This document shows, one piece after another, positions 1 to 21,176 of a stretch of DNA of 64,000 bases. The stretch comes from Citrobacter koseri (GTDB taxonomy: Bacteria > Pseudomonadota > Gammaproteobacteria > Enterobacterales > Enterobacteriaceae). Location: contig UAVY01000008.1 of NCBI GenBank assembly GCA_900446925.1, positions 310,001 to 374,000 on the forward strand, in the 5' to 3' direction. Below the pieces are notes generated by a model, which saw only the letters and a list, made by a program, of their open reading frames with translations, was not told the DNA's origin and searched no databases. The position numbers were made by a program, and so were the translations under genes. Position 1 is the first letter of the stretch. Every line of letters begins with the position of its first letter.

Positions 1-1017
1 GTGCGACTGGAACACGCGGTTCTGCTCGCTGTTAGAGAGGCGTGCATACAGCGGCAATACTTCGGTATGGCGCAAATTGAGTTTATTGAGCGCATCGGCG
101 GTATCGCGGATTTCGCGTTCGCCGCTCATAAAGATCAGGATATCGCCGGGACTTTCACGCCCCAGTTCATCCACCGCGTCAAAAATCGCCTGAAGCTGAT
201 CGCGCTCGGTATCGTCCGCTTCTTCGACAATCGGACGATAGCGCACCTCAACCGGGTACGTTCTGCCGGAAACTTCAATGATCGGCGCATTGTTAAAATG
301 ACGCGAGAAGCGCTCCGGGTCGATGGTCGCGGAGGTGATGATGATTTTCAGATCCGGGCGACGCGGCAACAGCTCTTTCAGGTAGCCAAGCAGAAAGTCG
401 ATATTCAGGCTGCGCTCATGCGCTTCATCAATGATGATGGTGTCGTACTGCATCAGCAGCCTGTCCTGCTGGATTTCCGCCAGCAGGATACCGTCCGTCA
501 TCAGCTTGACCATCGTGTTGTCGCTGACGTGATCGCTGAAACGGACTTTATAACCGATGCAGCCGCCCGGTTCCGTTTGCAACTCTTCGGCAATACGGTT
601 GGCAACGGTACGCGCCGCCAGACGACGCGGCTGCGTATGGCCGATCAGCCCTTTAATACCGCGCCCCAGCTCCATACAAATTTTCGGCAACTGCGTGGTT
701 TTACCAGAGCCGGTCTCCCCCGCCACAATCACCACCTGGTGGTCGCGAACGGCCTCCAGGATGGCCTGTTTTTTCTGGCTGACAGGCAGGTTTTCTGGAT
801 ACGTTATTTCCGGTCTGGCGGCTTCGCGCAGCACAATTTTACCTGCTGCCTGTTCAATCTCTTTCGCCATCTCCAGGAGAATGGCCTGTTGTGCATCAGG
901 TTTTTTAACCTTCTTCACGCCATGCAGGCGGCGGGCAAAGCGCTGCCTGTCACGCAGCATCAGCGTATCCAGCTGTTGCTGAAGTGCGGCGAAGGTGATT
1001 TTCTGTTGTTCTGTCAT
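1..1017 (-). CDS. hrpA: ATP-dependent RNA helicase HrpA, N-terminal 339 residues (3' end off window)
   Basis: DEAH-box RNA helicase; in E. coli HrpA resolves stalled or collided ribosomes on mRNA. The frame read leftward from the ATG at 1017 is open to the window edge with no frameshift. It begins MTEQQKITFAAL. Walker A is GETGSGKTTQ at about residue 95, the DEAH box is IIIDEAHERSL at about 190, and motif III is ITSATID at about 220. The full protein is about 1300 residues, so only the first helicase domain is present. It diverges from azoR, as in E. coli. A 348-residue open frame on the opposite strand is an antisense shadow. Confidence 0.95.
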   Translation of the reverse strand, partial: MTEQQKITFAALQQQLDTLMLRDRQRFARRLHGVKKVKKPDAQQAILLEMAKEIEQAAGKIVLREAARPEITYPENLPVSQKKQAILEAVRDHQVVIVAGETGSGKTTQLPKICMELGRGIKGLIGHTQPRRLAARTVANRIAEELQTEPGGCIGYKVRFSDHVSDNTMVKLMTDGILLAEIQQDRLLMQYDTIIIDEAHERSLNIDFLLGYLKELLPRRPDLKIIITSATIDPERFSRHFNNAPIIEVSGRTYPVEVRYRPIVEEADDTERDQLQAIFDAVDELGRESPGDILIFMSGEREIRDTADALNKLNLRHTEVLPLYARLSNSEQNRVFQSH

Positions 1018-1206
1018 AGCATTAGAGGGCAGTGCTCTGCCGGGTAAAATCTCTTTTTAATGATTGGTATAGAGTACCACATCGGCGCTTTTCGTGTGTT
1101 GTTCAATAATTTCGAACATAGGATTCGATATATTGCGCTATCTCTGCGACAGGATTGTGAATAGAGTGTCAACAAGCAACGGGGCTCACCCCATTCAAAC
1201 ACATAA

Positions 1207-1824
<618 letters not shown>

Positions 1825-1838
1825 GATTTATTTGCCTC

Positions 1839-1878
1839 ATCCGGCCTGCAAGGGGTGTCATCCTCCCGCAGGCCGGAT
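1839..1878. repeat. REP-like inverted repeat between azoR and ydbC
   Basis: Perfect 11-bp arms ATCCGGCCTGC (1839-1849) and GCAGGCCGGAT (1868-1878) around an 18-nt loop. The GCCGGAT core is typical of enterobacterial REP/BIME elements. It sits between two convergent genes and may act as a bidirectional transcription barrier. Confidence 0.75.
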
Positions 1879-1886
1879 AACCTCCA

Positions 1887-2756
1887 TCAGGCATTCATGC
1901 CATTCAGCACCGCAAGAACCTCATCCGAAAGTTGCAAATCCCCTGCCGCCATATTTTCACGCAAATGCGTCACTGACGACGTTCCCGGAATTAACAGGAT
2001 ATTGGCTGAACGTTGCAGCAACCATGCCAGCGCAACCTGCATTGGCGTCGCATTCAGGCTGGCGGCAACGTCGGAGAGCGTTGATGACTGCAACGGCGTA
2101 AACCCGCCCAGCGGGAAGAACGGCACATAAGCGATACCCTCGCCCGCCAGCGCGTCAATAAGTGCGTCATCCTGGCGATGGGCAATGTTGTACTCATTTT
2201 GCACACAAACAATTTCGGCAATCTTCCTCGCCTCAGCCACCTGGTTCGCGGTGACATTGCTCAGACCGATATGCTTCACCAGCCCCTGCTGCTGAAGTTC
2301 TGCCAGCACGCTAAAACTCTCTTCGATAGATCCTTCATGCGGGCCATGACCGTCGCCGAACATAACGCGCAGGTTGACCACATCCAGCACATCAAGTCCG
2401 AGATTACGCAGATTATCGTGAACCGCCTGCTTCAGTTCCGCAGGCGAGAAAGCGGGCAACCACGACGCATCTTCCCCGCGACGGGCGCCAATTTTGGTGA
2501 CGATCGCCAGATCGTCAGGATACGGATGCAGCGCTTCTCGAATGATTTGGTTCGTAACATGCGGGCCGTAAAAATCGCTGGTATCAATGTGATTCACACC
2601 CAGCGAAATCGCCTCCCGAAGCACCGTCAGCGCGACGTGACGGTCTCTCGGCGGGCCAAATACACCAGGTCCTGCCAGTTGCATTGCCCCATAGCCCAGC
2701 CGTTTTACCTGCCGGGAACCGAGAGAAAACGTCGCTGAATTACCGTGACTTGCCAT
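1887..2756 (-). CDS. ydbC: Aldo/keto reductase YdbC (pyridoxal reductase PdxI family)
   Basis: NADPH-dependent aldo/keto reductase; the E. coli homologue has been described as a pyridoxal reductase (PdxI) in vitamin B6 salvage. It is 289 residues with the AKR active-site segment GVNHIDTSDFYGPH at about 53 (Asp and Tyr of the tetrad) and KIGARRGE carrying the Lys at about 87. The C-terminal cofactor motif is LLIPGTSSVTHLREN. E. coli YdbC is 286 residues; the three extra are at the N-terminus, where MASHGNSATFSLGS replaces a shorter leader. It is convergent with azoR. Intact. Confidence 0.93.
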   Translation of the reverse strand: MASHGNSATFSLGSRQVKRLGYGAMQLAGPGVFGPPRDRHVALTVLREAISLGVNHIDTSDFYGPHVTNQIIREALHPYPDDLAIVTKIGARRGEDASWLPAFSPAELKQAVHDNLRNLGLDVLDVVNLRVMFGDGHGPHEGSIEESFSVLAELQQQGLVKHIGLSNVTANQVAEARKIAEIVCVQNEYNIAHRQDDALIDALAGEGIAYVPFFPLGGFTPLQSSTLSDVAASLNATPMQVALAWLLQRSANILLIPGTSSVTHLRENMAAGDLQLSDEVLAVLNGMNA

Positions 2757-2863
2757 AACTGCCCCTCTTGCTGAATATCGCTTCGGAGCAGACAGTATAG
2801 AAACTTACCCTGCAAATTATCGCGCTTTATCATACAAAACAGAAAATACGTAGAATCAATATC

Positions 2864-3271
2864 TCAATAGAACAACAACAGCATCAACCATCCCAGCCAC
2901 AGAATGGCAACCCAGTACAACGTACGCTGACACTGCTTTAACGCCCCCTGCTGCCGCCCGGCAAGCGTCAACGTCAGTAGCTTTTCTCGCTGCCAGATAA
3001 AGCAAAGCACTTCACCAGCTTGCTCGTTATTTTCTTCGTTGATAAGAGAAAAATACTGAGCATCAAGCCACAGTCGCCAGCAACCAAACCAGACAATGCC
3101 GCTCATCATAGCGATCATTGTGCGGAGTATCCCCGGTGGTGAGAGCAGGAGAGCCCAGGCCAGCGGTGGGAAAGTGAAGAGCAAAAAGAAACGCCAGCTA
3201 TTAAGCGTTTGCATCAACAAGCGAGCCTGTAGAAGATGCTTATTAGTTATGTTGTCACTTCTGTTTTCCAT
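2864..3271 (-). CDS. Small membrane protein of unknown function, last gene of the ynb operon
   Basis: 135 residues and not recognised as a named family. Two hydrophobic stretches are visible: residues about 27-62 (FFLLFTFPPLAWALLL onward) and the extreme C-terminus (VAILWLGWLMLLLFY). Between them is a polar region of about 40 residues. Its ATG (3271) lies inside the end of ynbD (stop at 3247), overlapping 25 bp, which points to translational coupling and co-transcription with the ynb lipid genes. I do not recall an equivalent next to K-12 ynbD. Low similarity to anything I know, so no function is assigned. Confidence 0.7.
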   Translation of the reverse strand: MENRSDNITNKHLLQARLLMQTLNSWRFFLLFTFPPLAWALLLSPPGILRTMIAMMSGIVWFGCWRLWLDAQYFSLINEENNEQAGEVLCFIWQREKLLTLTLAGRQQGALKQCQRTLYWVAILWLGWLMLLLFY

Positions 3272-4533
3272 TGTTTTAACAGCTCCAGATGTTCAGATGT
3301 AAAAACAACCTGCGGTCGCGTCTTTCGTAGTCGATCAACTGCGTCATCAACACCTAACCCCGGATAGCGATACAATAACCATGCCGCCCCCACCAATGCA
3401 CTGCGTGACAGTCCCAGCGCGCAGTGAATAAGGACGCTGCCATGAGTGATGCGCAATTGCTCCAGCGAACCCACTGCCTGATAAAGCGTGTCGTAGTCCG
3501 GTTTAACCAGATCCAGCATCGGTACGCAACAATAGACAACGTCTTGCGAAGCGTGGGAGCGGGGAAACTCACCGGTCAGATCCAGTACCGCCTGTTGCTC
3601 CACAGGTCTGCACGGATACGCACCTAAAAACAGCCCATCGACCAGAGGGCTGACCGCCGGTAAGCGGCGGGTATAGCAGTGCATAGAGAGCATCATCCCC
3701 AGTCGCCAGGGAAACAGCAGCCACCAGGCGGCGGGCGTTAACCGCCCCGTCCTGTCTTTTTGTAATGCCTCGACGCCGAGCGCACCATAAGCCAGCGCCA
3801 CAATCAGCAACGCCAATGTCGGCCACCACAACCAGGGCGTCACAAACGTGCCAGCCAGACACGCCAGTACACCAAACAGATAGCGAGTAGCCAGAATCTT
3901 ACGCTTACCAGAGGCGATGCGCCAACGCCATTGCCCCTGTCCCGGAATCAACCAGTCGATAACCATACCCACTGCCAGCCCGGTGATAACATCAATAAAA
4001 TGGTGCTGCCAGGTAGTCAGAACCGATACGGCAATCAGCAAAAACCAACCACCGTTCAATGCTTGCCATTTGCCCTTCAGATGACGATGGAAGTGCCGCC
4101 ACAGCAACCAGCACAAAATAATATGCAACGACGGCGACTGATTATACGGTAAATCAAACCGTTCAAGCTGACCAAAGAGCCAACCGGCCGGACCGGTTAT
4201 CTCCGGTCTGGTGAAGGTAAATTGCAGCGGAAATAACAAGAAGCCAATGCAGGCAATCAGTGAAGCCAACACTAATTTGCAGACCAGTCGCCGCTGTTCA
4301 TTCAGCGTTGTACAGACGAATAGCGACAGGCCGTACAGCAGATCCAGACTCCAGTAAGGAATAATAGTCAGGGGCACAAAAGGAATATGCCGCTCCCACT
4401 CAAAAACCAGACTACTAATGTTATCTCGCCCGGCGGTAAACTGGTTAACCTGCCCGTAGGTTAAAAAGAAAAACGGAGCAAGCAGCAGTAACCAGCCTAT
4501 ACCTTGCCGGTAAACAGAACGTCGGGTTGTCAT
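3247..4533 (-). CDS. ynbD: YnbD: PAP2-like phosphatase fused to a dual-specificity protein phosphatase domain
   Basis: 428 residues (E. coli 430). The N-terminal two thirds carries multiple membrane segments with PAP2/inositolphosphotransferase landmarks: NQSPSLHIILCW at about 170 and HHFIDVITGLAVG at about 215. The C-terminal third is a cytoplasmic cysteine phosphatase with HCALGLSRSA, a CX5R loop, at about 376, and an upstream Asp in PMLDLVKPDYD. It probably dephosphorylates a lipid phosphate or polyphosphate made by the operon; the substrate is unknown. The ATG at 4533 overlaps the restored ynbC stop in ATGA. A longer upstream reading exists only because a frameshift in ynbC opens that frame. 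Confidence 0.9.
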   Translation of the reverse strand: MTTRRSVYRQGIGWLLLLAPFFFLTYGQVNQFTAGRDNISSLVFEWERHIPFVPLTIIPYWSLDLLYGLSLFVCTTLNEQRRLVCKLVLASLIACIGFLLFPLQFTFTRPEITGPAGWLFGQLERFDLPYNQSPSLHIILCWLLWRHFHRHLKGKWQALNGGWFLLIAVSVLTTWQHHFIDVITGLAVGMVIDWLIPGQGQWRWRIASGKRKILATRYLFGVLACLAGTFVTPWLWWPTLALLIVALAYGALGVEALQKDRTGRLTPAAWWLLFPWRLGMMLSMHCYTRRLPAVSPLVDGLFLGAYPCRPVEQQAVLDLTGEFPRSHASQDVVYCCVPMLDLVKPDYDTLYQAVGSLEQLRITHGSVLIHCALGLSRSALVGAAWLLYRYPGLGVDDAVDRLRKTRPQVVFTSEHLELLKQWKTEVTT

Positions 4534-6295
4534 GATGCGCGACGCACCCGCCATAGAAACGGTGAAAATTCCCCACCCATCTATCAGTTGAGCGCATTTA
4601 TCGAACCCGGCCCTCCCACACCAGCGCATCCATTTCGCCTTGCGTACGCACACGCATCACCCATGCTTTTCCATCCTTATGACTGGTCAACGACCAGGCG
4701 ATGGTTTTTAACTGTGGATGCCAGGGCTGACCGGTGTAGATCAGAATACCTCCCGGCTCAATGGCATCTGCCAGCCCGGCAAGAGAATTACGTACCAGCG
4801 TATTTTCCGGGAACAATTCATACAGTCCTGAGACAATTCCCAGCGTCGGTCGAGGTAGCAGCGCAGCCAGTTCTTCACGGTTAAAAGCATCCCCCCTTTC
4901 AAAACGCGCACGTGCCGCCATTGCGCGAGACGCTATCATTTCCTGGCCTCTCGCCACATTTAATTCGCTGTAGTCTCGTAGCAAAATTTCATCCACTGCC
5001 GTTTCACTTTCCAGCGCATCAAGTACATAACGCCCGTGACCAGCAGCAACATCAACCACCCGCACCGTCGTTCCCTGCTCAGCAAGTTTGGCAACCGCAT
5101 GCTGAATCAACATCTGCATATGGATTTTACGCTGACGGATCCCTTTCCAGCCCACGCTATTGAGGTAGTTTTTGTCAATCAGACGCCCCAGTGCGCTGCT
5201 ACCCTGCGGTTGATTGCGATAGACATAATCGAGCGTACTGCCAGAATCAAACCCCGTTTCAAATCCCAGACGGACTCCAGTGGATTGCGTCCCCAGCATC
5301 TTCATTGCCATAGCGCAAGGTACGATAAGCGATGTCATTTAGCGAATAAGGTTCCGGCCCACCGCTTAACATTCGCCAGGTATCCGCCCCCGGACCCCAG
5401 CGGTCTTCGTCGCTATAGTCCAAAACGTTGAGGAGGCAGAGCATAGAGCGTATCAATAAACACGCGCATTTTATCAAACGCCAGATGCCTCTCTTTTTCA
5501 CCCAGAGTATCGTGATAAAACCCCGGCAGAATATGAATTTCTTTTAGCGGGTTGCGCAGTCTCTGGTAGAAATCGATCTGCGGCTGGCGGTGAACAACGT
5601 AATCCTCCCCGGAGACCAACATCTGCACTGGCAAGGTGATCGCGCTGGCATCGCTGACAATTCTCTCTGCCGTTTTGTAGAGATCGAGCAGGATATTAAC
5701 CGCGATAGGACGGGTGACCAGCGGATCCTGATTGAAACTTGCCACCCTCGCCGGGTCGTGGGTCAGATACTTGCCCTTCACGTAGGAGTTAACAAAAAAG
5801 AGCCCGCGCAGTCGGTGCATCAACGCCAGCCCTGAGCGGGCAAACGGCACATACAGTTTGACCTTAAACGCCGGTGATGCCAGCACCAGACCGCGGATGG
5901 TCGGGGCGTAGTCATGTACCCAGGTTGACGCCAACACCGCACCAACGCTTTGTGCCACAACCACCACATCCTCTATTGAGGCCTGACTGTCAGTTGCAAC
6001 AAAACGAACAAACTCATCCACATCCAGAACCGAACGAGCCAGCGATGGACTGTACCCGCGCGGGCCCGGCGAGCGCCCGTGCCCACGGGCATCCCCAGGC
6101 GTAGAACGCCGTATCCGGCATCGCCAGTTCATCGATAATATGTTGCAGACGACCAGAATGCTCATGTCCGCGATGGAACAGGACAATCACTTTCGGCGTT
6201 GCCCCTGCCGACGTTGCGGGCCAGTAGCGATAAAACAGCTCAACGTTGTCACTGGTTAAAAATTGCCGTTCTTCAGGCGCCCGTGTATTAATCAT
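4530..6295 (-). CDS. ynbC: YnbC: alpha/beta hydrolase fused to a SAM-dependent methyltransferase (five frameshifts as sequenced)
   Basis: Restored length is 586 residues (E. coli 585). The N-terminal domain is a monoacylglycerol-lipase-like hydrolase: LFHRGHEHSGR, WDARGHGRSPGPRG, nucleophile VVAQSVGAV, and the late catalytic His in PGFYHDTLGE. The C-terminal domain is a class I methyltransferase with motif I VVDVAAGHGRYVLDAL at about 410. Single extra G residues (sense strand) near 6097, 5417, 5308, 4612 and 4553 break the frame; deleting all five gives one open frame ending SMAVRRAS-stop at 4530. The ATG at 6295 overlaps the end of the acyltransferase gene by 8 bp. Likely acts on a lipid intermediate of the operon (inference). 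Confidence 0.85.
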
Positions 6296-6929
6296 GGGAA
6301 TGACTTCCTGTTGTTTGTTGCGAAAGCGCTACCAACTGGCACTTCAGATCGTCCATAAACGTGTTTTTATCGGAATTAAAACTCAGTGCGTTACCTACCG
6401 TGACGCCGATAAACAGCGGAAGCGGAATACGGTTTCCCTTGGCCATCACTCGCTCTGTTCCCCGCAGCCAGACAGGAATAATCGGGACTTCCGGCATGCT
6501 TTGGCTCAAATGCCATAACCCTGATTTCAGCGGCGACAGCTTACCTGCCTCGCCGCGCGTGCCTTCTGGAAAAAGGATTAATGTTTTTCCCTCACGCAAT
6601 GCCTGCTCGCACAGTGCCAGAGGGTTAGCCTCTCCGCCTTTACGTGAAATGGGGATAATGTTGAGAATATTGAGCGCAAACCACGCCATGATTTTATTAC
6701 GCAAGAAATAATCAGCCGCCGCGACGGGATGCACTTCAGCCTGACGGCAGAGTGGAAAAAGAGAAAGTAGCGCGAAGACATCCATGTGACTGTTGTGATT
6801 GGCCACCACAATCGCCGGGCCGCTTTTCGGCAATCTTTCTTGATATTTAACACGCAGACCAAGCCACAACCACATGATCGGCCAGACGATGCACAGCGCA
6901 AACAACGGACGAAGGATACGCGTCATCAT
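6288..6929 (-). CDS. PlsC-like 1-acyl-glycerol-3-phosphate acyltransferase in the ynb operon
   Basis: 213 residues with an N-terminal membrane anchor (PLFALCIVWPIMWLWLG) and the acyltransferase blocks in order: block I NHNSHMD (HX4D) at about 45, block III FPEGTRGEAGKLSPLK at about 121, and block IV VPIIPVWLRG. This family transfers an acyl chain to lysophosphatidic acid or a related lysophospholipid at the inner membrane. It lies 3 bp after ynbB and overlaps ynbC by 8 bp, so it is co-transcribed. I do not recall a separate acyltransferase between ynbB and ynbC in K-12, so it appears to be an extra or retained gene. Substrate unknown. Confidence 0.88.
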   Translation of the reverse strand: MMTRILRPLFALCIVWPIMWLWLGLRVKYQERLPKSGPAIVVANHNSHMDVFALLSLFPLCRQAEVHPVAAADYFLRNKIMAWFALNILNIIPISRKGGEANPLALCEQALREGKTLILFPEGTRGEAGKLSPLKSGLWHLSQSMPEVPIIPVWLRGTERVMAKGNRIPLPLFIGVTVGNALSFNSDKNTFMDDLKCQLVALSQQTTGSHSHD

Positions 6930-6932
6930 AGG

Positions 6933-7850
6933 TTAGTAGCAGAAGTAACGAATGAAATGAAAGAAGACGGGCGCGGTAAAGATCAGCGAATCGAGCCGAT
7001 CAAGGATGCCTCCATGTCCGGGTAACAGCGTGCCGCTGTCTTTAACACCGATATCGCGTTTGATCGCGGACATCACCACATCACCGCAAAATCCAGTTAT
7101 GCCAATAATCACACCTGCCAACAGCGCCATCGGCCAGTTTAACGGCGTAAGCAGCGGCCCCAGAATCATTGCCGCCACCGCCGTCGTTACCACGCCCCCC
7201 AGCAATCCTGCCAGGGTCTTATTCGGACTGACCTTCGGAATGACTCTGATACGGCCGAGCGATTTCCCCCACAGGTATTGAGCAATGTCGTTGAATTCGG
7301 TCAGCCCCACCAGAAACAGCACCAACAGTGCGCCGGTCTGTAGACCATCCGCAGGCAGTACCAGTAAAAAGGCGACATGGCTGAAGGCAAATACTGTCGT
7401 CATCAAACTCCAGTGCAGTTGAGACGCGGTACGTAAAAAGCCCTGCGTATCGCCTGTAAGGACCATCCGCGCAGGTAAGAACAGAAAAACATAAACGGGA
7501 ATAAACACCACAAACATGCCGTACCAGCCAATGCCAATCAGCCAGTAATTGATGGGGATGGCAATAAACATCCACAGCAGTGGCATACGGTCTGATTGTC
7601 GCGACGGTGCCAGCGTCAGAAACTCTTTTAGCGCTATAAAGCTCACCAGTGCGAAAAATGTCAGCGCCAGCCATTGCGGACTGAGCATCGCCAGCGAAAA
7701 CAGCACGATAATCACCCACCATGTGCGAATACGCAGCGTCAGTTCCTGCCAGTCTTTCCCTGGACGCAGCAGCACCAGTAATCCATTGACTACCGTTGCC
7801 ACCAGCAAAAGCGCAAAAATGACCGCGAGCGATTTCTCCAGCAACATCAT
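6933..7850 (-). CDS. ynbB: YnbB: CdsA-family CDP-diglyceride synthase
   Basis: Integral membrane phosphatidate cytidylyltransferase family, 305 residues (E. coli YnbB about 298). About eight hydrophobic helices are visible. The family signature near the C-terminus is complete: S-A-I-K-R, then KDSG and LLPGHGGILDRLDS at about 258-285, including the Asp residues that bind metal and CTP. It is a paralogue of the essential CdsA and would make a CDP-activated lipid for YnbA. The ATG (7850) overlaps the ynbA stop by 4 bp. Intact, unlike its neighbour ynbC. Confidence 0.93.
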   Translation of the reverse strand: MMLLEKSLAVIFALLLVATVVNGLLVLLRPGKDWQELTLRIRTWWVIIVLFSLAMLSPQWLALTFFALVSFIALKEFLTLAPSRQSDRMPLLWMFIAIPINYWLIGIGWYGMFVVFIPVYVFLFLPARMVLTGDTQGFLRTASQLHWSLMTTVFAFSHVAFLLVLPADGLQTGALLVLFLVGLTEFNDIAQYLWGKSLGRIRVIPKVSPNKTLAGLLGGVVTTAVAAMILGPLLTPLNWPMALLAGVIIGITGFCGDVVMSAIKRDIGVKDSGTLLPGHGGILDRLDSLIFTAPVFFHFIRYFCY

Positions 7851-8458
7851 TTCGCCTCCTCGTCATGTAATGCACTACGGCAGCGGTTGATGACCGTCCA
7901 CAGCAGCAACACGATTGCAACGCCCCACACGGCGTTATTCCAATGCAAAAGCTCTGGCCAGATCGCCAACCCCAGTCCCCAGGCACCAAACACCAGCGCC
8001 CTGTCGCTTTTCCCCAACGGCCCGGCATAGCTGCGCACGCCATTGATGGTTTGTGCCAGCACACCACAAAACTCGGTCATTGCCGCACAGAACAACATGA
8101 GCAGCACCAGCAACGTATTACTGTATGGCAGCAGCATAAAAGGCAGGTAGAGAGCGACATCAGAGAGAACATCCCCAGTCTCATTGAGAATGGCGCCAGG
8201 ACGTGATTTTTGATTGCACTCTCGCGCCAGCATGCCGTCCAACGCATTAAGCGCCATACGCACAAACAGCACGACAGGAAGCAGAAAAAATAAATCAGGA
8301 TGAGGAAAGAAAACTAACACCGCACCGGTGATCAGGGAAAGCGCCATCGCTGCAAGGGTGACGTGATTAGCGGTGGCATGGTGTTTGTACAACCAGAACA
8401 TCAATGGGCGCAGAAGCGCCTGAAAAGCGGGCTTTATCTGATAAAGCGTCATCATCAT
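7847..8458 (-). CDS. ynbA: YnbA: CDP-alcohol phosphatidyltransferase family protein
   Basis: 203 residues, with membrane helices throughout. First gene of the leftward ynb operon. The CDP-alcohol phosphotransferase motif lies at about residues 73-95: NALDGMLAR, then eight residues, then GAILNETGD. The first and third of the four canonical aspartates are Asn here (N-D-N-D). E. coli PgsA, for comparison, has D-D-D-D. Whether this changes metal use or substrate is unknown. It is expected to transfer an alcohol to the CDP-lipid made by YnbB. The ATG triplet at 8458 (MMM) leaves the exact start uncertain by one or two codons. Confidence 0.92.
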   Translation of the reverse strand: MMMTLYQIKPAFQALLRPLMFWLYKHHATANHVTLAAMALSLITGAVLVFFPHPDLFFLLPVVLFVRMALNALDGMLARECNQKSRPGAILNETGDVLSDVALYLPFMLLPYSNTLLVLLMLFCAAMTEFCGVLAQTINGVRSYAGPLGKSDRALVFGAWGLGLAIWPELLHWNNAVWGVAIVLLLWTVINRCRSALHDEEAK

Positions 8459-8566
8459 TCCCTGATAATCTATGAACTTTTGTCATAGTGCACTAATTAA
8501 TCACATCATGACGAATGCTTTCCATCAACTGAAGGTAAAATCAGATATTACCAACGTGTGGCAACG

Positions 8567-8890
8567 TTACTTTTTCAGCCACTTACCGTTAATGCCCTGC
8601 ACATACTCACCCGGCTTTGCACGGTCGACCAGCTTTTGTCCGGCCATTTTCGCCACCTCATCCACCGGAATCTGATGGCTTTTCGCCAGCTGTTGATAAC
8701 TGGCGCTACGCTCTTTATTAATCTCGCTGACGAGCGAGCGCGTTTCTGGATCGGTTGCCAGCGCCACCAGATAACCATTAAGCGTTTCCCCCACTCGCCC
8801 TTGCGTTCTCGCTTCGCTCAGGGTCAACGCGATGGCGTTGCAGCTCAATAAACTCAGGATAAGAACGGTCGCTCTAAGCTGTTTTTTCAT
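8567..8890 (-). CDS. ydbL: YdbL, DUF1318 periplasmic partner of YdbH-YnbE
   Basis: 107 residues (E. coli 108). Signal peptide MKKQLRATVLILSLLSCNAIA, then a DUF1318 domain with the conserved GRVGETLNGYLVA and AGQKLVDRAKPGEYVQGINGKW. In E. coli YdbL acts as a periplasmic helper for the YdbH-YnbE lipid bridge between membranes. I chose the second of two adjacent ATGs (8890) because GAGG lies 5 nt upstream; 8893 is the alternative. It follows ynbE by 7 bp. Last gene of the ydbH operon. Intact. Confidence 0.93.
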   Translation of the reverse strand: MKKQLRATVLILSLLSCNAIALTLSEARTQGRVGETLNGYLVALATDPETRSLVSEINKERSASYQQLAKSHQIPVDEVAKMAGQKLVDRAKPGEYVQGINGKWLKK

Positions 8891-8897
8891 CATGACC

Positions 8898-9080
8898 TCA
8901 GAACAAATCACTGCGTGACTTCAATAAACTTTCCACGTCCTTATCAACCTTGATATGAATTTCATGCTCAATTTTGACGTTCATATTGATGGTGATCGGT
9001 TCCTTCGGCGCTGCAACTTCAATACGCGGCGTACAGCCCGCCAGTAAGAAGAGCGCCAGCATGGCAATCATCGTTTTCAT
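8898..9080 (-). CDS. ynbE: YnbE, small outer-membrane lipoprotein
   Basis: 60 residues. Lipoprotein signal with lipobox LLAGC at about 12-16, then an amphipathic beta-prone stretch (ITINMNVKIEHEIHIKVDKD). In E. coli YnbE multimers extend the beta-groove of the AsmA-like protein YdbH at the outer membrane to complete a phospholipid path. It starts 9 bp after the ydbH stop and is followed closely by ydbL. Intact. Confidence 0.94.
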   Translation of the reverse strand: MKTMIAMLALFLLAGCTPRIEVAAPKEPITINMNVKIEHEIHIKVDKDVESLLKSRSDLF

Positions 9081-9089
9081 TGTTGTTCC

Positions 9090-11724
9090 TCACATTCCTT
9101 GCCTTCCGGGCAACGGGGTTTCCGGCAACGCGGTGTTTTGTTCAAGCCATGCCTGTAAGTTGTCGCCAAAACGCAAACTGCGCCAGAGCGTAAAGACATT
9201 TTCTTCATGGGTATAGTTCAGGTTAACTGTGCCGACTTTACCGTCCACATGGCTTTTACCCGTGACCGTCGCCTGCATGGTCAGCACGCCCAGATTGTCC
9301 AGATTAATCTTCGTCCACGAACGGGCAATCTCCCATATAGCGTAACCAGTTGATTGCCGCGCCCGCCGCCATATTGTCTTTGACGACCGCATCCGGCGGT
9401 ATCTTTATCGATACGCAGCGTCATCGGGCCTGGATTGGTTAACCAGCCGTCTTTAATGATCCATTTTTCATTGCTCAGCCATAGCGGAAGCGCGCCGCTA
9501 ACCGGGCCGGACATCGCAAATTGTTTGGGATTCACCGCGCTGATCAGTTCGCTGGAAGAGACATTTTGCAACCCGCAGCAGTGCCGGATCGTGCTGCGGC
9601 ATACGTAGCTGTTTCATGATGATTTTGCCGCCCAGCACATCCACGCTCACGTCACTCAGCAATAAAGGATTCTCTTCGCTCCACGGATAACTTCCCTGGA
9701 GATCGGCCGTGATATTTTTCGCGGTGACCTGGTTTACCACCTCTGCGATGCGTAATGACACCGGCCCGCGCGTCCCCCAGTTGCCAGGCACCCTGACTGA
9801 AACGGAACGGCAACACAAAATCGACGCCGTTGATTTGGTTGTCCGGCATCCAGGCGCTACCGCCTTTCAGTACGCCGTGTCCACCCCGCTTTCAAACCCC
9901 TGCTCCTCTGCGCGGAAAAAGCCACCTGCGCGTACAGTTCGCCTGCGCGCAAATTCATTTTCCAGTCAGGAGGCAGCAAGGGCTGGAAGACCGTAACAGA
10001 CTGTTTTGGCCACCAGGCCTGCCGCGTAAACGAATGCCGTCCCAGCGGCCCATTTACCCGTACTGGCCCAATCGCCCCCTGCGGTGCAGGTCGCCTTTGA
10101 ACTGGAATACCGTTGGGTCCGTTCCTTCAACGCTGAATTTGAGCGTTGACGGCGGTAAGACGCTGCCGCCGGTGAACACGGTATTGCCCGCATCCAGCGA
10201 TAACGCGCCGCTGAAGGTCGGGTTCCCGGCATCACGAACCCACACGATCGGTTTATCCAGCACCAGGCGCGGAGACGCCACCGTCATCGTGCCGTATTGC
10301 AGTTGATTGAATCCGGTGGACAGGTCGGTAAGCGTGATGGTGTTGTCGTGCCATTCTCCTTTCCCGGCAACATCCCAACCGGCGTTCATCGGAGTGAAGC
10401 TACCCTCGCCCCAGTAGCGCCACTGCCAGCGCCCCGCATCGGGAAGAAAATCATTCGCCAGCCCATCAAGATGCAGGACAAAGTCGCCCATCTTATTTTC
10501 GTGCGCGCGTAAAATTGCCTGTAATCGGCCATCAACTCCGCGTTGGGTAACTTTTACGCCAGCCAGCGGCCAGCGAATTTCGTCAATATCCAGAGAGTCG
10601 ATCACCCGGCCACGAGAACGCAACAGCGCGCCGGGTTCAAAGGTCAGTTGTGGATCGGCCAGACTGCCGGTGAGCTGTGTCGGCAGTACTGCATAAAAAA
10701 TCAGATCGTCCTGTTTCGCTTCACCGGTTAAACGCAGGGGCATGTCGCTGTTATCCATACTCAGCTTGCCTGGCCCAATCGTCAGCACCGCATTGCCTTT
10801 ACCCGCATCGCCTTGCGTCAGAACATTCAACCGGCCGCTTATCACCGCATTTTCAAGACCTGCCTGCCAGTTATTAATGTTGATCCCCAGACGTCCGCTC
10901 AGCGGAAAGCCCTGATACGGCCAGTTCCAGCGTCCATCGCTGATGGCAAGTTGCTGGCGAGTGACCAGCCAGGGGAGATCGAGCAGCGGCTCCGGGTTAC
11001 CGCGCGCCATGACGATCAGCTGTCCGGCGTTGTCCCGCCACTCCAGTTCCGCATCCACCAGCGACGGTTCCTGCGGCAGGCTCAGCGTTGCGACGGCGTG
11101 TCCGTTCACCGGCAGCCCGTCCGGCACCAGGGGCAGCGTAAATTCCCCTTCCAGTTTTACAGGGGGCTGATTTTCGAAGGCGCTCACCTCCAGTTGGCTG
11201 ACGGTGAAGTTTTGCCCGTGCAGCCGCCCCTGAAAGTTGACCTTCTCGCCCTGATAACGAATCTGTTGGAGGGCTGGCGTCAGCGAAAGCGACAATTTCC
11301 CCTGCCATTCCTGCCAGGGAGAAAGAATAAGCCTGTCGATATTAACCCAGGTATTAGGCAGCATAGACTGCCATTCTGCGAGCGTGCGCGGCGCCACGGG
11401 CGATGGTTCAGATTCAGGGAGTTTTGCCAGACAGGCGGAGTCCAGTTCAAGCGTACCGATATTCAGCTGCCAGCGGCTGGGATGGGTGAGTTCCGCGCCG
11501 CTCATGCGTGCTAACGGGCAGTCCTCCACCAGATAACGCAGCTCCGGGATATGCAGGCCGTGGCGCGTAAGTTTCGGGCTTTCATCCAGCGCGATACGCG
11601 TACCAACCGGTAACCAGATGCCCGCCAGCGTAGGAAGCCACAGGCCAAGCGTCATGAGCAGCGTTAACGGTATAAGGATCAATAATAAAAGTAGCGCGAG
11701 AACGGCTTTGTATTTACCCTTCAT
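9090..11724 (-). CDS. ydbH: YdbH, AsmA-like intermembrane lipid-transport protein (several frameshifts as sequenced)
   Basis: The first 550 or so residues are open from the ATG at 11724: a short cytoplasmic N-terminus, one transmembrane helix (LALLLLLILIPLTLLMTLGLWLP) and then a periplasmic beta-taco domain. From about 10,080 leftward the frame shifts repeatedly (near 10080, 9960, 9830, 9700, 9560 and 9370), but the frames together cover the rest down to the stop at 9090. The span fits the 879-residue E. coli protein plus or minus indels. YdbH is partly redundant with TamB and YhdP in moving phospholipids to the outer membrane. It diverges from the accessory block and leads ynbE and ydbL. Confidence 0.87.
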
Positions 11725-12068
11725 GGGTAGTTAATATCCTGATTTAGCAAAAATTAAGCCGGTAAGGCCCGTATTGTGGCATGTTTGGGCGCTCAGTTGA
11801 AGGCGTCGCCCTCACTAAGGATAGATGTTCTGCCGCGACCCAACAATTTTGAGGTCGTCTTAGAAATGATAAAGTTGATGATATAACAGAGCGTTAGTAT
11901 CCGATCCTTCTGCCATCTCACCATGATGGCGCACATCCGCAGTCAGGCAAACATTTTGTACTGAATTAACTCAGTCTCCTGATTTATTACGGAAAACAGA
12001 GGCGCAGAGGACTGACCATTTGCAGATCCTCTGCCTAGGCTCACATTCCTGCCATCCTGTAGCAGCGT
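11725..12068. other. Intergenic region upstream of ydbH
   Basis: 344 bp between the start of ydbH and the end of the DUF417 gene, both leftward. It must hold the ydbH promoter. No convincing gene, operator or strong terminator hairpin is visible by eye. It marks the left edge of the accessory block, where base composition begins to fall. Confidence 0.5.
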
Positions 12069-12512
12069 TTATACCCGGTATGTTCCATTCCTGAATGCCA
12101 GATACCGGGTAAGGTCATATTTCAGCAAAACTGCGCCAGCGCCAATCAAGAGAACATCCTTGATAATGAAGCTGTCAATTTTCCCCAGTTGTGGCAGCAG
12201 GCTCAGAGTCGTTACTCCTGTAGTGATAACAATGAGATCGCCTGGTATGCCAACACCAGGTCGGGCGAAGCCAATGATCAACGCAAGAAATGTAATGGTT
12301 TCCATAACGCCAAGGAAATAACTTCCCCCGTGGACACCAAAAATCAAATACAGAATATTGAGCCATGTTGATGAAATCAGAGGCTCCAGGGCCATAACTT
12401 CAAAGTCAAACCATTTATAAGTACCAAACAACATAAATACACCGATAACGCTCAGGCGAAGAATGACGATATCGTAATCTGAGCGAATGAATCGATTAAT
12501 GAAATTCTTCAT
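12069..12512 (-). CDS. DUF417 family membrane protein (YkgB/RclC-like)
   Basis: 147 residues with four hydrophobic segments: about 18-38 (VILRLSVIGVFMLFGTYKWF), 53-75, 77-98 and 105-140. FGTYKWFDFE and the GFARPGVGIPGD loop are characteristic of the DUF417 family, which includes E. coli RclC of the reactive-chlorine response. Unlike rclABC, no RclA flavoprotein or RclR regulator is adjacent. It is instead the last gene of a leftward run with a LuxR-type regulator 47 bp upstream. Function unknown. Intact and AT-richer than the flanks. Confidence 0.8.
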   Translation of the reverse strand: MKNFINRFIRSDYDIVILRLSVIGVFMLFGTYKWFDFEVMALEPLISSTWLNILYLIFGVHGGSYFLGVMETITFLALIIGFARPGVGIPGDLIVITTGVTTLSLLPQLGKIDSFIIKDVLLIGAGAVLLKYDLTRYLAFRNGTYRV

Positions 12513-12559
12513 TCATATTCTCCGGGAAGATAATAATGAGATGCCAGCCAGATTTTATC

Positions 12560-13021
12560 TCAGATGAGAAATATCAGTTCAAAAAAAGCATTCCGATCAA
12601 TGCCGTTACTTTTAAATGGCAGGTGCATTCCATTTTTTAAGCCAATTTTTTTCTTGATATTGTAAATATGCGAATATACTGTTTTCTTACTTCGACCTCT
12701 CACCCTGGCGATTTGCTCTACACTAAAGTGTTTATAGTATAAAAGGAAAGCGATAATTCTTTCATTATGTGTTAATGATTTACCTTGATCATTCAAACAA
12801 GAACCATGCTTCATATTGCAAGGCTCTGACTTGCAGGCAAGGTAAAAATCATACCCGTAGAAAAGTATGCTAATGAGTCCGGCGAACTCATTATCACAGA
12901 TAATAAAATACGTTTCTTTTTCGCTGTTAAAATGTTCAACGCCAAGTGCCTCACACGAGTTGAATAATACTTCAGCGCCTTGCTGAAAATAAAAATCATG
13001 CGTCGCGATGATAATTTTCAT
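12560..13021 (-). CDS. LuxR-type HTH transcriptional regulator (second of the block)
   Basis: 153 residues. The N-terminal 85 residues resemble a degenerate receiver-like fold (MKIIIATHDFYFQQGAEVLF) with a Cys-containing loop (ACKSEPCNMKHGSC). The C-terminal half has a LuxR/FixJ helix-turn-helix: SLTHNERIIAFLLYY, FSVEQIARVRGRS and KKTVYSHIYNIKKKIG. No phospho-acceptor Asp is obvious at the receiver end of strand 3, so it may not be a phosphorelay protein. It lies 48 bp after the adhesin gene and before the DUF417 gene, and is a likely local regulator of both (inference). AT-rich codon use suggests acquisition. Confidence 0.8.
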   Translation of the reverse strand: MKIIIATHDFYFQQGAEVLFNSCEALGVEHFNSEKETYFIICDNEFAGLISILFYGYDFYLACKSEPCNMKHGSCLNDQGKSLTHNERIIAFLLYYKHFSVEQIARVRGRSKKTVYSHIYNIKKKIGLKNGMHLPFKSNGIDRNAFFELIFLI

Positions 13022-13069
13022 TATTGCTCCATGAGCAGGGAGTAAAATACCCCCTGCTGTAAGCTTTAA

Positions 13070-14095
13070 TCAGAACTCCAGACTAATACCCGTGTTCCAT
13101 GAAACGGAATCTCCACCGGCCGCAACTGCCATTTTACCTGCAACATTGTCTGTAAAGCGATAGCCGATCCCAACGGCTACTGCCTGCTTATCTGAATATC
13201 CTCCCAATGCCGCAGTAGCATTAAATTTACCCACGCTATAAGGCTGGAATAAACCTGCAAGCGCCGCATTCTGAGCTGCACTTTCACGAATTTCTTTGCG
13301 GTTGTTAGATATCTGTTTTTGCAGACCATTCATTCTGTCTGCCGCCATTTTTTGCCAGGATTCATGAAGATCTAAACGGCGACTATTCTTACTGACCGCA
13401 GACTGGTTAGCATTGATTTTTCCAGATAAATATTTGCTGGTCTGAGAAAGCTCGCCACGAACAGTTTCCGTATTGCTGTCTATACGCGCGTAAGCATCCC
13501 TTTTTGACACTGCCGATTTCGCCGCGCAAGGAATCACCCTGCTGCTTAAGCTCGCCACGCACGGCTTTTGCATTACTGTCGGCCCGTGCGTAGGCATCCC
13601 TTTTGGCGCTGCCGATTTCACCACGCAGGGAATCACCCTGCTGCTTAAGCTCACCACGCACGGACTTTCGCATTATTGTCAGCCTGTGCAATTGCATCAG
13701 CTTTGGCCTGGCCGATTTCGCCGCGCAGAACATCCTTTTGTTCATCCAGTTCTTTATTAACCTTTCCAACGCTTACGGTCACGTCCTGTTTCACCGTATT
13801 TATTGCGTCCCGCTGTGAAGCCAGCGAGCGATTTTGAGCATTAATTTGTTCATTAATATAATTTTTCGTCGTATTTGCAGCATCATTTACACGCCCATTT
13901 ACATATCTAACCACCTCGTTTCGATAATTCTCCCCTTTTTTGAGAAAGAGATCGGGCTAATTCGATCAGTTCATTATTTAGTTCTCCCCTGGTAATTGTT
14001 TTGTTGGGATTGTTCTGATCTTCTGCCCAACTGATATTGCTTAGAGCCCCGAACAAAACCACACCTAACATAGAGGCCATAACATTCTTATGCAT
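13070..14095 (-). CDS. Small YadA-like trimeric autotransporter with 33-residue coiled-coil repeats (three frameshifts as sequenced)
   Basis: Removing one base near 13940 (A run), 13665 (C) and 13505 (A) gives a single 340-residue protein. It has a signal peptide ([24 protein letters not shown]), a stalk rich in Q/N/K/E/D coiled-coil sequence, and about three copies of a 33-residue repeat whose core is [18 protein letters not shown] YadA-type membrane anchor follows: [25 protein letters not shown] at about 278, then GIGYRF, ending ISLEF with the terminal Phe of outer membrane proteins. No globular head domain is visible, so it is a short adhesin or a surface stalk. It sits between two LuxR-type genes. 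Confidence 0.85.
13460..13740 (-). repeat. 99-bp tandem coding repeats in the adhesin stalk
   Basis: The segment TGCCGATTTC recurs at 13511, 13610 and about 13710, each followed by near-identical sequence. The spacing is 99, then 100 bases, the extra base being one of the frameshift insertions. The repeat encodes 33 residues. Copies differ at a few positions, more so toward the N-terminal copy. Confidence 0.85.
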
Positions 14096-14154
14096 GTAAA
14101 CACCCTTAAATTAAAATTAGGAACAATTTTTATCTATTGCAGAAATAAACAGAC

Positions 14155-14766
14155 TCAAACCAGAGAACAACAATCTGGAATTCGCCATCTTTTGCGTAGG
14201 AAGTTTTCAATCAACCAGACTTGCCTGATTCCAACTTTTAAATTAATTGCTATCATCTCTCGACTGAAGCCAGAAAGTATTAGTGCAAGAACACTTTTAG
14301 ACAGCTTCGATAACCTCCCGGAAGAAAGTCGCGCATGTGTTATTTCATTAAGTAAAGGTACTGTATCCGTAAGATATGCTGTATCCTGAACAGATTCTTT
14401 CCTTAGTAAAACAGGAGGAAGAAAATAAATTACACGCTGTATTGTTTTCTCGTGGTGTTTTACACCGCTTCTCCCTTCAATAGTGAAGTAGTTAAAAAAC
14501 TCAGCAATGGTCTCATCCACAGGCAAAAAATAGCCATGCTTAAATATCAATGCTGCGCACGGGTAACACTCCCGAACATGCAGCCAGAAACTCAAAAATA
14601 AAGACGGCCGCCCATATATTACGACAGTAGCTGAAGGATACCTGTGAAGCTGCTCCAGTAGACTACATGTAGAGCAGGCATTTTCAGTTATTGAAATTGG
14701 TTTATTCAATAAGGTTATCTTGCTTACTGTTCCAGGCTTATTCATCGACAGATTCATCGCGTACAT
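14155..14766 (-). CDS. LuxR-type HTH transcriptional regulator (first of the block)
   Basis: 203 residues, probable start at 14766 (14757 is an alternative). The N-terminal 135 residues are not recognised. The C-terminus has a LuxR-like helix-turn-helix: LSKLSKSVLALILSGFSREMIAINL, then VGIRQVWLIENFLRKRW. This resembles the enterobacterial EcpR/FimZ-like group only in layout. It is 59 bp upstream of the adhesin gene, same strand, and faces a long AT-rich leader region, so it is the likely first gene and regulator of the block (inference). Intact. Confidence 0.78.
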   Translation of the reverse strand: MYAMNLSMNKPGTVSKITLLNKPISITENACSTCSLLEQLHRYPSATVVIYGRPSLFLSFWLHVRECYPCAALIFKHGYFLPVDETIAEFFNYFTIEGRSGVKHHEKTIQRVIYFLPPVLLRKESVQDTAYLTDTVPLLNEITHARLSSGRLSKLSKSVLALILSGFSREMIAINLKVGIRQVWLIENFLRKRWRIPDCCSLV

Positions 14767-15557
14767 TTTTTATTCCATTAAAAAGTCGCTACGATACTGC
14801 GCGCAGTCATAATAACACCTCCAACTTAACTTCGCCGGATAAGACAGGATTTAACATGCTGTGTTGTTAATAGTATGTATTAAGTTACGGCAATATCACC
14901 CCTCCACTCTTGTTTGTATTAAACGTGTTAATAAAAATCACGAGGATTCCAGTTAAAATAACAAAACTAATTTCTTGGTTAAATTATGCTTATTTGGAAT
15001 CCTTTGACAATCCCTTGATAAACGGGATAACAGGAGCATATCAACACCTGTTTAAATAAGTGCAAAAAATAAAAGGGAAATTACTGCTGGTCACACCAGA
15101 CAGGACAATTGGTGAAATTTACAGAAATGTGATAAACATCACAGCAAATGAAAAAGTGCATTAAATTCATCATGGAATGGAGCGATGAGCGGAGCAATTA
15201 TCAATTTTTGTCAATCAATTGAAGCGATAGGTTATTTCGTATGAAAGTGAGGGTTTGCAGGTTATGTCTGTCGGTTGTTCGACGTTACGAACGTCTGTCA
15301 GCCTGATTCGCTACAGAAAGAATACGTCAGTCTGTGGAAGAGTAACTGACCCACTGATAAGGCGTGGGTTCAGAATGACCGGAAGGGAAATATGTGTTAA
15401 AGAAAGTTGTTTAATTTTTAGTATGATAGGTGCCTTAAGAAGAGATGTTCTAAAATTATTCATTATGTCATGGTCACGCCCTATCAATTATTTTTTAAAT
15501 TTTGTAAGATAATTTTAATTGATTCAATGTTATTCCACCATCGCTGGAGAAAGTCTT
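14767..15557. other. 790-bp AT-rich intergenic region between the accessory block and ldhA
   Basis: No credible gene. An 85-residue open frame at 15255-15512 (+) has no clear ribosome-binding site and an odd composition, so I reject it. A perfect CRP-type palindrome lies at 15128-15143. The region must hold the promoter of the LuxR-type gene (leftward) and of ldhA (rightward). It may contain remnants of an older insertion. Confidence 0.5.
15128..15143. promoter_or_regulatory. Candidate CRP-cAMP operator
   Basis: TGTGATAAACATCACA matches the CRP consensus TGTGA-N6-TCACA exactly, with flanking AAA on the left. It is about 415 bp before ldhA and 360 bp before the leftward LuxR-type gene, so the target gene is unclear. 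Confidence 0.55.
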
Positions 15558-16548: not shown

Positions 16549-16555
16549 CCCTTCT

Positions 16556-16577
16556 GCTCCCCTGCGTTCAGGGGAGC
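16556..16577 (+). terminator. ldhA terminator-like hairpin
   Basis: Perfect 9-bp stem GCTCCCCTG / CAGGGGAGC with a CGTT loop, 7 bp after the ldhA stop. It is followed by only a weak T stretch (ACTTTC). Confidence 0.65.
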
Positions 16578-16661
16578 ACTTTCAGATAATCCCCGATGAT
16601 ATACCAGGCTATATCATTACAATTATGAATGATTTCCCGTCAGTAAATGTAGAGAGTTTTA

Positions 16662-17084
16662 ATGAAGAAGATCGTCGCACTGGTTGCACTCAGCATGCTT
16701 ATGGCAGGCTGTGTCAGCAATGGAAAAGTCTCCGTTAACCGTGATCAGCTACAGCATCACCGTTTTGTTCTGGAGAGTGTAAACGGAAAACCAGTCGCTG
16801 CGGGTAAGAACGCCCCGGAGTTAAGCTTCGGTGAAAAAATGACGGTTTCTGGCCGCATGTGCAACCGCTTCAGTGGCCAGGGCAAGCTGTCTGATGGCGA
16901 GCTGAAAGTCAAAGAAATGGCGATGACGCGTATGATGTGCGCCGACCCGCAGTTAAATGAACTGGATCACACCATTAGCGCGATGCTCAAACAGGGCGCG
17001 CAGGTCGACTTAACGGCTAACCAGTTGACGCTGGCGACCGCAGAACAAACGCTGATGTTCCGACTGGCTGATTTAGTGCATTAA
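16662..17084 (+). CDS. hslJ: Heat-inducible lipoprotein HslJ
   Basis: 140 residues, equal to E. coli HslJ. Lipobox LMAGC at Cys17, then a META domain: HHRFVLESVNGKPV, LSFGEKMTVSGRMCNRFSG and MTRMMCADPQLNELD. In E. coli it is a heat-shock gene that affects novobiocin resistance; its molecular role is unknown. The stop codon overlaps that of the convergent ydbJ. Confidence 0.94.
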   Translation: MKKIVALVALSMLMAGCVSNGKVSVNRDQLQHHRFVLESVNGKPVAAGKNAPELSFGEKMTVSGRMCNRFSGQGKLSDGELKVKEMAMTRMMCADPQLNELDHTISAMLKQGAQVDLTANQLTLATAEQTLMFRLADLVH

Positions 17085-21148: not shown

Positions 21149-21176
21149 TACGGCTGTTTGAGTATTCGTCAGAACG

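What the first reader, a model, noticed from the sequence alone, without database searches (positions are those of the whole stretch)
2864..8458. Six-gene lipid operon: acyltransferase plus CDP-lipid synthase, phosphatidyltransferase, hydrolase-methyltransferase and phosphatases
The genes overlap or nearly touch (4, 3, 8, 4 and 25 bp). Together they could build, activate, head-group, modify and dephosphorylate a lipid: PlsC-like, YnbB, YnbA, YnbC and YnbD. I do not recall the PlsC-like gene from the K-12 version. This looks like a self-contained minor phospholipid pathway whose product is unknown.
Basis: partly seen in the sequence, partly recalled or inferred. Interest (0 to 1): 0.7.

Follow-up and report, generated by a model that had tools for sequence, protein, structure and literature searches.

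The report
Enterobacterial version of arc1 lipid-defence operon
This six-gene bacterial operon contains the same six kinds of gene as arc1, a Pseudomonas gene cluster that helps cells survive membrane-cutting toxins injected by rival bacteria, so the poorly understood E. coli ynb genes are probably a trimmed copy of that defence.

Summary
The six genes are at the stated coordinates. ynbC, however, is split over five frame segments in this assembly. That looks like assembly error: 18 of 38 matched frames of the nearest genome are split too, and relatives have ynbC intact.

The operon corresponds gene for gene to Pseudomonas arc1A-F (PA2541-36). Published PAO1 primers locate arc1 in a near relative, and all six families match. 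Gene order is permuted. In P. aeruginosa arc1 protects against type VI secretion attack, including lipase effectors (PMC8926400, PMC12663445, passages); 'ynb' is in the main text of neither. E. coli K-12 ynbABCD is a reduced arc1 lacking plsC and the sixth gene.

The operon is accessory. It is absent from the nearest genome (about 99% identical flanks, 17-bp scar), and a Citrobacter plasmid carries all six genes.

YnbA replaces two of the four metal-binding aspartates of CDP-alcohol phosphotransferases with asparagine in 149 of 149 scorable rows. Nine other family members in five genomes keep all four.

Best reading: a dedicated pathway that makes or repairs a special phospholipid and helps withstand phospholipase attack. 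Homology to arc1 is shown; the product and the enterobacterial defence role are inferred.

The parts
7847..8458 (-). ynbA / arc1A: CDP-alcohol phosphotransferase-like membrane enzyme, 203 aa, with Asn in place of Asp at two of four metal sites (N71, N92)
6933..7850 (-). ynbB / arc1F: phosphatidate cytidylyltransferase family (CDS), not CdsA itself
   Evidence: PF01148 231.8 bits; CdsA equivalog 92 bits against cut-off 385; 45% identical to Arc1F; CDS signature residues invariant or nearly so in 119 rows
6288..6929 (-). plsC-like / arc1E: lysophospholipid acyltransferase family; absent from the E. coli K-12 operon
   Evidence: PF01553 87.2 bits; HX4D and FPEGTR residues conserved in 113-114 of 114 rows; 35% identical to Arc1E; found in 3 of 5426 E. 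coli genomes, all on plasmids
4549..6295 (-). ynbC / arc1B: alpha/beta hydrolase fused to SAM methyltransferase; split over five frame segments in this assembly, full length in relatives; 3' limit approximate
   Evidence: PF12146 and PF12147 on separate pieces; frame segments; full-length relatives; pieces 51-63% identical to Arc1B
3247..4533 (-). ynbD / arc1C: PAP2-like membrane domain plus dual-specificity phosphatase domain; start approximate
   Evidence: PF00782 55 bits; PAP2_3 and PAP2 below cut-off; CX5R, PSxH and HxxxD residues conserved in 144 rows bar gaps; 43% identical to Arc1C
2864..3271 (-). 135-aa predicted membrane protein, counterpart of arc1D; no known family
   Evidence: No Pfam or NCBIfam hit; profile-profile match to an Arc1D-type alignment, probability 97, E 9.7e-11; AlphaFold model of four helices, pLDDT 76
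2856..8565 (.). Stretch present here and absent from the nearest genome G001, where 17 other bases lie between the two flanks
   Evidence: Flank matches 1-2855 and 8566-20000 adjoin in G001; junction read
8459..8566 (-). Leader upstream of ynbA, with a Shine-Dalgarno-like stretch; promoter and regulation not determined
   Evidence: Sequence looked at by eye beside 12 other leaders; sigma-70 scan found no more sites than shuffles

Best explanation
The operon is the enterobacterial form of arc1 (antagonism resistance cluster 1). It probably runs a dedicated side branch of phospholipid metabolism that helps the inner membrane survive phospholipase attack. Proposed steps (inferred): the PlsC-like enzyme re-acylates a lysolipid or lysophosphatidate. 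YnbB activates the resulting acid as a CDP-lipid. YnbA, an atypical CDP-alcohol phosphotransferase, transfers it to a phosphorylated alcohol that is probably not inositol phosphate. YnbD removes the phosphate. YnbC hydrolyses an acyl ester and methylates the product or its head group. The small membrane protein assembles or anchors the enzymes. Shown here: the six-family homology, the conserved unit, the catalytic motifs and the Asp-to-Asn changes in YnbA. Taken from papers: the defence phenotype in P. aeruginosa. Not shown: the lipid product, co-transcription, and any defensive role in enterobacteria.
For: Six-family match. The published PA2541 start primer is exact in 1 of 398 Pseudomonadaceae-family genomes. 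In that locus 9 of 11 primer segments that I tried match with at most 1 mismatch, 1 with 3, and 1 is not found in place; six genes of the same families lie there. Window-to-Arc1 identities are A 50%, F 45%, E 35%, C 43%, and B 51-63% by pieces; D matches by profile at E 9.7e-11. In reverse, Arc1F finds ynbB (238 and 229 bits) far ahead of the next CDS (84 and 80) in G024 and G010, and Arc1A finds only ynbA. Conservation as a unit: 44 of 76 family loci have the full six in order; 49 of 81 mostly pseudomonad and xanthomonad loci have all six in arc1 order. A complete set lies on a Citrobacter plasmid. Phenotype of arc1: Gac/Rsm-regulated defence against B. thailandensis T6SS (PMC8926400, passages); arc1A needed for full resistance to lipase effectors TseL and Tle1 (PMC12663445, passages). 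Phosphorylated acceptor: YnbA R153 and R192 align with the two arginines of M. tuberculosis PgsA1 that hold the acceptor phosphate, while its R94, tied to inositol phosphate, is V, I or L in YnbA.
Against: No enterobacterial operon has been tested for defence in the papers seen. Gene order differs from arc1. K-12 ynbABCD lacks plsC and the sixth gene; 17 of 76 family loci lack plsC and ynbB in the cluster and 15 more are other partial sets, 6 of them ynbC alone, so the full set is not always needed in one place (16 of the 17 have a ynbB-plsC pair elsewhere). Arc1's role is called auxiliary beside arc3A in the 2025 paper, and no single B. thailandensis effector explained it in the 2022 paper. 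Two missing metal ligands could mean that YnbA is not a working transferase. Reverse searches were run for Arc1A and Arc1F only. The acyl donor, head group and methylation target are unknown.
Confidence: 0.55

Rival explanations
1. A minor phospholipid pathway for ordinary membrane maintenance or stress, with no special role in antagonism.
For: Enzyme classes and conserved motifs. A ynbC disruption gave polyphosphate accumulation, read there as cell stress, in HMS174(DE3) but not in the Keio deletion (PMC2435150, passages); ynbC is one entry in a table of mutated genes in a persistence study (PMC13313352, passage).
Against: In P. aeruginosa strains lacking Arc1-3 survived heat, peroxide, salt and detergent like wild type but not T6SS attack (PMC8926400, passages). 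Patchy and partly plasmid-borne distribution fits an accessory trait better than housekeeping.
Confidence: 0.25
2. An extra phosphatidylglycerol synthesis route: PlsC, CDS, PgsA-like and PgpB-like steps rebuilt for membrane repair.
For: The arc1 authors note four products with homology to PG-synthesis enzymes (PMC8926400, passage).
Confidence: 0.08
3. A backup supply of CDP-lipid or GlcNAc-PP-DAG for the glycolipid MPIase or for enterobacterial common antigen (ECA).
For: YnbB overproduction raises MPIase (PMC6362211, passage). ynbB was one of five genes with fewer transposon insertions in a strain making only phosphoglyceride-linked ECA (PMC8609368, passage).
Against: MPIase was not significantly changed in the ynbB knockout (PMC6362211, passage); the ECA authors report ynbB as not necessary for phosphoglyceride-linked ECA (PMC8609368, passage, partly unpublished data). 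The other five genes are left unexplained.
Confidence: 0.05
4. The operon is decaying in the window's strain: ynbC is a pseudogene.
For: Four frame changes in ynbC.
Against: 18 of 38 matched frames of the nearest genome are split too, and 73 of 91 small indels are single-base insertions in the window. ynbA, ynbB, plsC and the sixth gene each align to a relative in one frame.
Confidence: 0.07

Closest known systems
Pseudomonas aeruginosa arc1A-F (PA2541-PA2536), antagonism resistance cluster 1
   Same: All six gene families in one compact cluster; ynbB/arc1F and ynbA/arc1A as best matches in reverse searches; same Asp-to-Asn pattern in YnbA and Arc1A
   Different: Order is ynbA-ynbC-ynbD-X-plsC-ynbB (A-F) in the pseudomonad locus and ynbA-ynbB-plsC-ynbC-ynbD-X here; regulation and defence role untested here. 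The compared locus is from a near relative (G1159, recalled as strain PA7), not PAO1 itself
Escherichia coli K-12 ynbABCD
   Same: Homologous ynbA, ynbB, ynbC, ynbD in the same order, near azoR and pdxI
   Different: No plsC-like gene and no sixth gene; its ynbB is 61.5% identical to the window's, against 90.5% for an E. coli plasmid copy
Phosphatidylinositol phosphate synthases (PIPS, PgsA1) and other CDP-alcohol phosphotransferases
   Different: D1 and D3 are Asn in every scorable row read; R94 of PgsA1, tied to inositol phosphate, is not conserved
CdsA phosphatidate cytidylyltransferase
   Same: CDS signature and Pfam family
   Different: 92 bits against the CdsA equivalog cut-off of 385; a separate, lower-scoring CDS exists in the same genomes

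Membership tests
arc1 (antagonism resistance cluster 1) | All six gene families present in one cluster | tested here: met
arc1 (antagonism resistance cluster 1) | Orthology rather than mere family resemblance | tested here: met
   Reverse searches of Arc1A and Arc1F in G024, G010 and G001; not run for Arc1B-E, which rest on pairwise and profile matches
[quoted passage not shown]
   No expression data; leader sequences only looked at
arc1 (antagonism resistance cluster 1) | Protection against T6SS attack | not testable with these tools
   Seen only for P. aeruginosa (PMC8926400, PMC12663445, passages)
CDP-alcohol phosphotransferase (canonical) | Motif D1xxD2G1xxAR...G2xxxD3xxxD4 with four aspartates | tested here: not met
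   D1 and D3 are Asn in 149 of 149 scorable rows of 150; D2 and D4 kept. Hence 'atypical, CDP-AP-like'
CDP-alcohol phosphotransferase (canonical) | CDP-AP membrane fold | tested here: met
   AlphaFold model, Foldseek and VIA-align
CdsA equivalog | Score above the curated equivalog cut-off | tested here: not met
   92 against 385 bits; it is a CDS family member, not CdsA
PlsC / LPLAT acyltransferase family | HX4D and FPEGTR motifs | tested here: met
   113-114 of 114 rows per residue. The narrower TIGR00530 subfamily cut-off is not met, 68 against 103 bits
Dual-specificity phosphatase | CX5R active-site motif | tested here: met
   C in 142 of 142 and R in 143 of 143 scorable rows of 144

The most novel reading that the evidence does not exclude
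YnbA/Arc1A belongs to an unrecognised clade of 'N,N-type' CDP-alcohol transferases in which two of the four catalytic aspartates are replaced by asparagine. The clade has its own dedicated CDP-lipid synthase (YnbB type) and acyltransferase, and occurs both in arc1 operons and in separate plsC-ynbB clusters. In arc1 it builds a novel, probably methylated phospholipid that resists or repairs damage by interbacterial phospholipases. The cryptic ynb genes of E. coli would be what is left of this immunity pathway.
Probability: 0.3. Interest if true: 0.8.

Novelty: new variant of a known kind. Interest (0 to 1): 0.6.

Why it matters
In the papers seen here YnbC is an ORF of unknown function (PMC2435150, 2008), YnbD has no function ascribed (PMC7413402, 2020), and YnbB has only an auxiliary role proposed in MPIase synthesis (PMC6362211). 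Tying these genes to arc1 gives them a testable function: survival of T6SS lipase attack. It also gives work on arc1 a genetically easy host. The uniform Asp-to-Asn change in YnbA is a concrete chemical clue that the pathway makes something other than PG, PS or PI, in line with the failed complementations by YnbB and YnbD.

Tried and rejected
Rejected: ynbC as a real pseudogene. PG duplication and MPIase/ECA supply (papers above). A link to octenidine adaptation in P. aeruginosa: that paper concerns smvR, pssA and pgsA (PMC8429429, passages). A specific promoter: the sigma-70 scan found 5 sites against a mean of 5.4 in shuffles; terminator-like sites were 16 against 7.5, but I could not place one convincingly. 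A fold for the sixth protein: no PDB match with E at or below 0.001, and the model has only pLDDT 76. Agreement of pairwise distances among the six families is high (Spearman 0.76-0.89 over 65 thinned loci of 94 with all six; 0.62-0.84 over the 32 that are not pseudomonad/xanthomonad-type), but no housekeeping control was run, so I do not lean on it.
Full report
WHAT IS THERE. Six genes lie on the minus strand between 8458 and 2864. Pfam gives CDP-OH_P_transf for ynbA, CTP_transf_1 for ynbB, Acyltransferase for the plsC-like gene, Hydrolase_4 and Methyltransf_20 on the pieces of ynbC, and DSPc plus sub-threshold PAP2 matches for ynbD. The 135-aa sixth protein has none, nor has it an NCBIfam match. 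The ynbC/ynbD junction cannot be read because ynbC is not one frame here.

THE BROKEN ynbC. A relative's YnbC aligns to the window in five segments over different frames. The window's own assembly is not held. Against the nearest held genome, G001 (98.7-99.3% identity in five aligned pieces), the window has 91 small indels over 57,488 aligned bases; 73 are single-base insertions in the window, 3 two-base insertions and 15 deletions. Of 48 non-overlapping G001 frames of at least 150 aa (mechanical frames, not curated genes), 38 match the window, and 18 of those 38 are split over more than one window frame. The break in ynbC is therefore most likely an assembly error. Seven of seven aligned relatives are full length, and in 72 of 77 family genomes the open frame at the best PF12147 match is 538-708 aa; in 5 it is shorter.

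ACCESSORY STATUS. G001 matches window 1-2855 and 8566-20000 side by side with 17 other bases between, so the whole operon is absent from a close relative. From its chromosome length (4,720,462 bp) I recall G001 as Citrobacter koseri ATCC BAA-895; no call names it. G024, another genus of the family, has the operon next to azoR and the ydbL-ydbH region, which suggests loss in G001 (inference). A Citrobacter sp. TSA-1 IncF plasmid carries all six genes near a Tn3-family transposase (the sixth confirmed by HMM). Three E. coli plasmids match with plsC present and the match ending inside ynbD; of these three, two gene tables were read and both show only a short ynbD remnant, one with an annotated frameshift in ynbA.

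E. COLI. K-12 RV308 has ydbD-ynbA-ynbB-ynbC-ynbD-azoR, without plsC or the sixth gene. A match to the ynb region occurs in 4563 of 5426 E. coli genomes. The plsC-like gene was found in 3 of 5426, all on plasmids.

DISTRIBUTION. PF12147 (the YnbC methyltransferase) occurs in 77 of 392 genomes of the family, 30 of 295 of the order sample and 15 of 369 of the class sample (12 over the cut-off). I fetched 76 of the 77 family loci (G636, a weak hit, was dropped). Of the 76, 44 have ynbA-ynbB-plsC-ynbC-ynbD-sixth gene in that order, 17 have ynbA-ynbC-ynbD-sixth gene without ynbB and plsC, and 15 are other partial sets, 6 of them ynbC alone. Of the 17, 16 have a full-length ynbB (41-47% identity) elsewhere, each beside a plsC. 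In 8 of those 16 stretches a third, weakly ynbA-like gene (63-77 bits) lies just upstream of plsC; the stretches reach only about 1.5 kb beyond the match, so others may be missed. I read the motif in 7 of the 8: all 7 have Asn at D1 and D3, and the motif's AR is AV. Two of two tested give no Pfam match.

THE LINK TO arc1. A search for the P. aeruginosa locus tags that I recalled as similar (PA2536-PA2541) led to one paper, PMC8926400. There PA2541-36 is named arc1A-F, one of three Gac/Rsm-regulated clusters that protect against T6SS attack by Burkholderia thailandensis; five of six genes are phospholipid-related (passages). A second paper, PMC12663445, found that arc1A is needed for full resistance to the lipase effectors TseL and Tle1, in an auxiliary role beside arc3A (passages). 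'ynb' occurs in the main text of neither (supplements not seen). The listings of paper searches showed no paper joining ynb to arc1; listings were capped, and the library holds open-licence PMC papers only.

TESTING IT. Appendix 3 of PMC8926400 (that section read whole) gives primers. The PA2541 start primer has an exact match in 1 of 398 genomes drawn from the family of a Pseudomonas genome, namely G1159 (6,588,339 bp; recalled as P. aeruginosa PA7). Of 11 primer segments that I tried, 9 match the fetched locus with 0-1 mismatch, 1 with 3, and 1 (best 5 mismatches, elsewhere) is not found in place. The start and end primers of PA2541 fall on the ynbA homologue, and those of PA2536 on the ynbB homologue. 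Between them lie homologues of ynbC, ynbD, the sixth gene and plsC. Thus arc1A=ynbA, B=ynbC, C=ynbD, D=sixth gene, E=plsC, F=ynbB. Identities to the window are 50% (A), 51-63% by pieces (B), 43% (C), 35% (E) and 45% (F). For D, a profile of 12 family sequences matches a profile of 6 sequences from the other gene order (two Pseudomonas-type, Xanthomonas, Lysobacter and two unnamed members of the order) with probability 97 and E 9.7e-11. In reverse, Arc1F hits ynbB at 238 and 229 bits in G024 and G010 against 84 and 80 for the next CDS, and in G001 only the latter kind (79.6 bits); Arc1A hits only ynbA, and nothing in G001. Of 81 loci (80 named, plus G1159), 49 show all six in the order A-F, 1 all six in another order, and 17 the order A-F without a recognised D.

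MECHANISM. Put together: re-acylation by PlsC, activation by YnbB, transfer by YnbA to a phosphorylated alcohol, dephosphorylation by YnbD, and acyl hydrolysis plus methylation by YnbC (inferred). Published negatives fit a lipid other than PG: YnbB did not complement a cdsA knockout (PMC6362211, passages; data not shown there) and YnbD did not complement PGP- or C55-PP-phosphatase strains (PMC7413402, passages). Both tests used the K-12 proteins. A ynbC disruption causes polyphosphate accumulation in one K-12 background but not in the Keio deletion (PMC2435150, passages). YnbC's hydrolase resembles monoacylglycerol lipases, which would suit removal of lysolipids (inference).

VERDICT. The reading as an unknown minor phospholipid pathway is upgraded: this is an arc1 operon in permuted order, and K-12 ynbABCD is a reduced one. 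Homology is near certain; the defensive role in enterobacteria is likely but untested; the chemistry is open, with the N,N motif as the most useful clue. Mended on re-checking: the count of clusters with a third gene (8 of 16, not 7), and the sixth gene of the Citrobacter plasmid, now tested. The odds did not change.

Noticed in passing
window 8566-64000: Many conserved frames are split: 18 of 38 matched to the nearest genome, with 91 small indels, 73 of them single-base insertions in the window, clustered in patches (for example 9.1-10.1 kb and 49-55 kb). The assembly looks uncorrected, so frameshift calls in this window should be doubted.
   Followed up: yes
L286-L291, L293, L296 (unnamed family genomes): A second cluster of a CDP-alcohol transferase-like gene, plsC and ynbB exists in genomes whose arc1-like core lacks plsC and ynbB. 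Its transferase also has Asn at D1 and D3 in 7 of 7 read (of 8), and two of two tested have no Pfam match.
   Followed up: partly
G001 C1 near 1387640-1387658: A 17-bp scar replaces the operon in a genome with about 99% identical flanks.
   Followed up: partly
L027 8711-6431: A three-gene ynbA-ynbB-plsC version without ynbC and ynbD nearby lies in another family of the order; its YnbA also has the N,N motif.
   Followed up: no
L001 and L314 (E. coli plasmids): E. coli plasmids carry a ynbA-ynbB-plsC-ynbC set with only a ynbD remnant; on one of them (L001) colicin and immunity genes lie within the fetched stretch.
   Followed up: no
window 30213-30307, 26394-26511, 21168-21289: Rfam matches to the small RNAs McaS, FnrS and MicC.
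   Followed up: no
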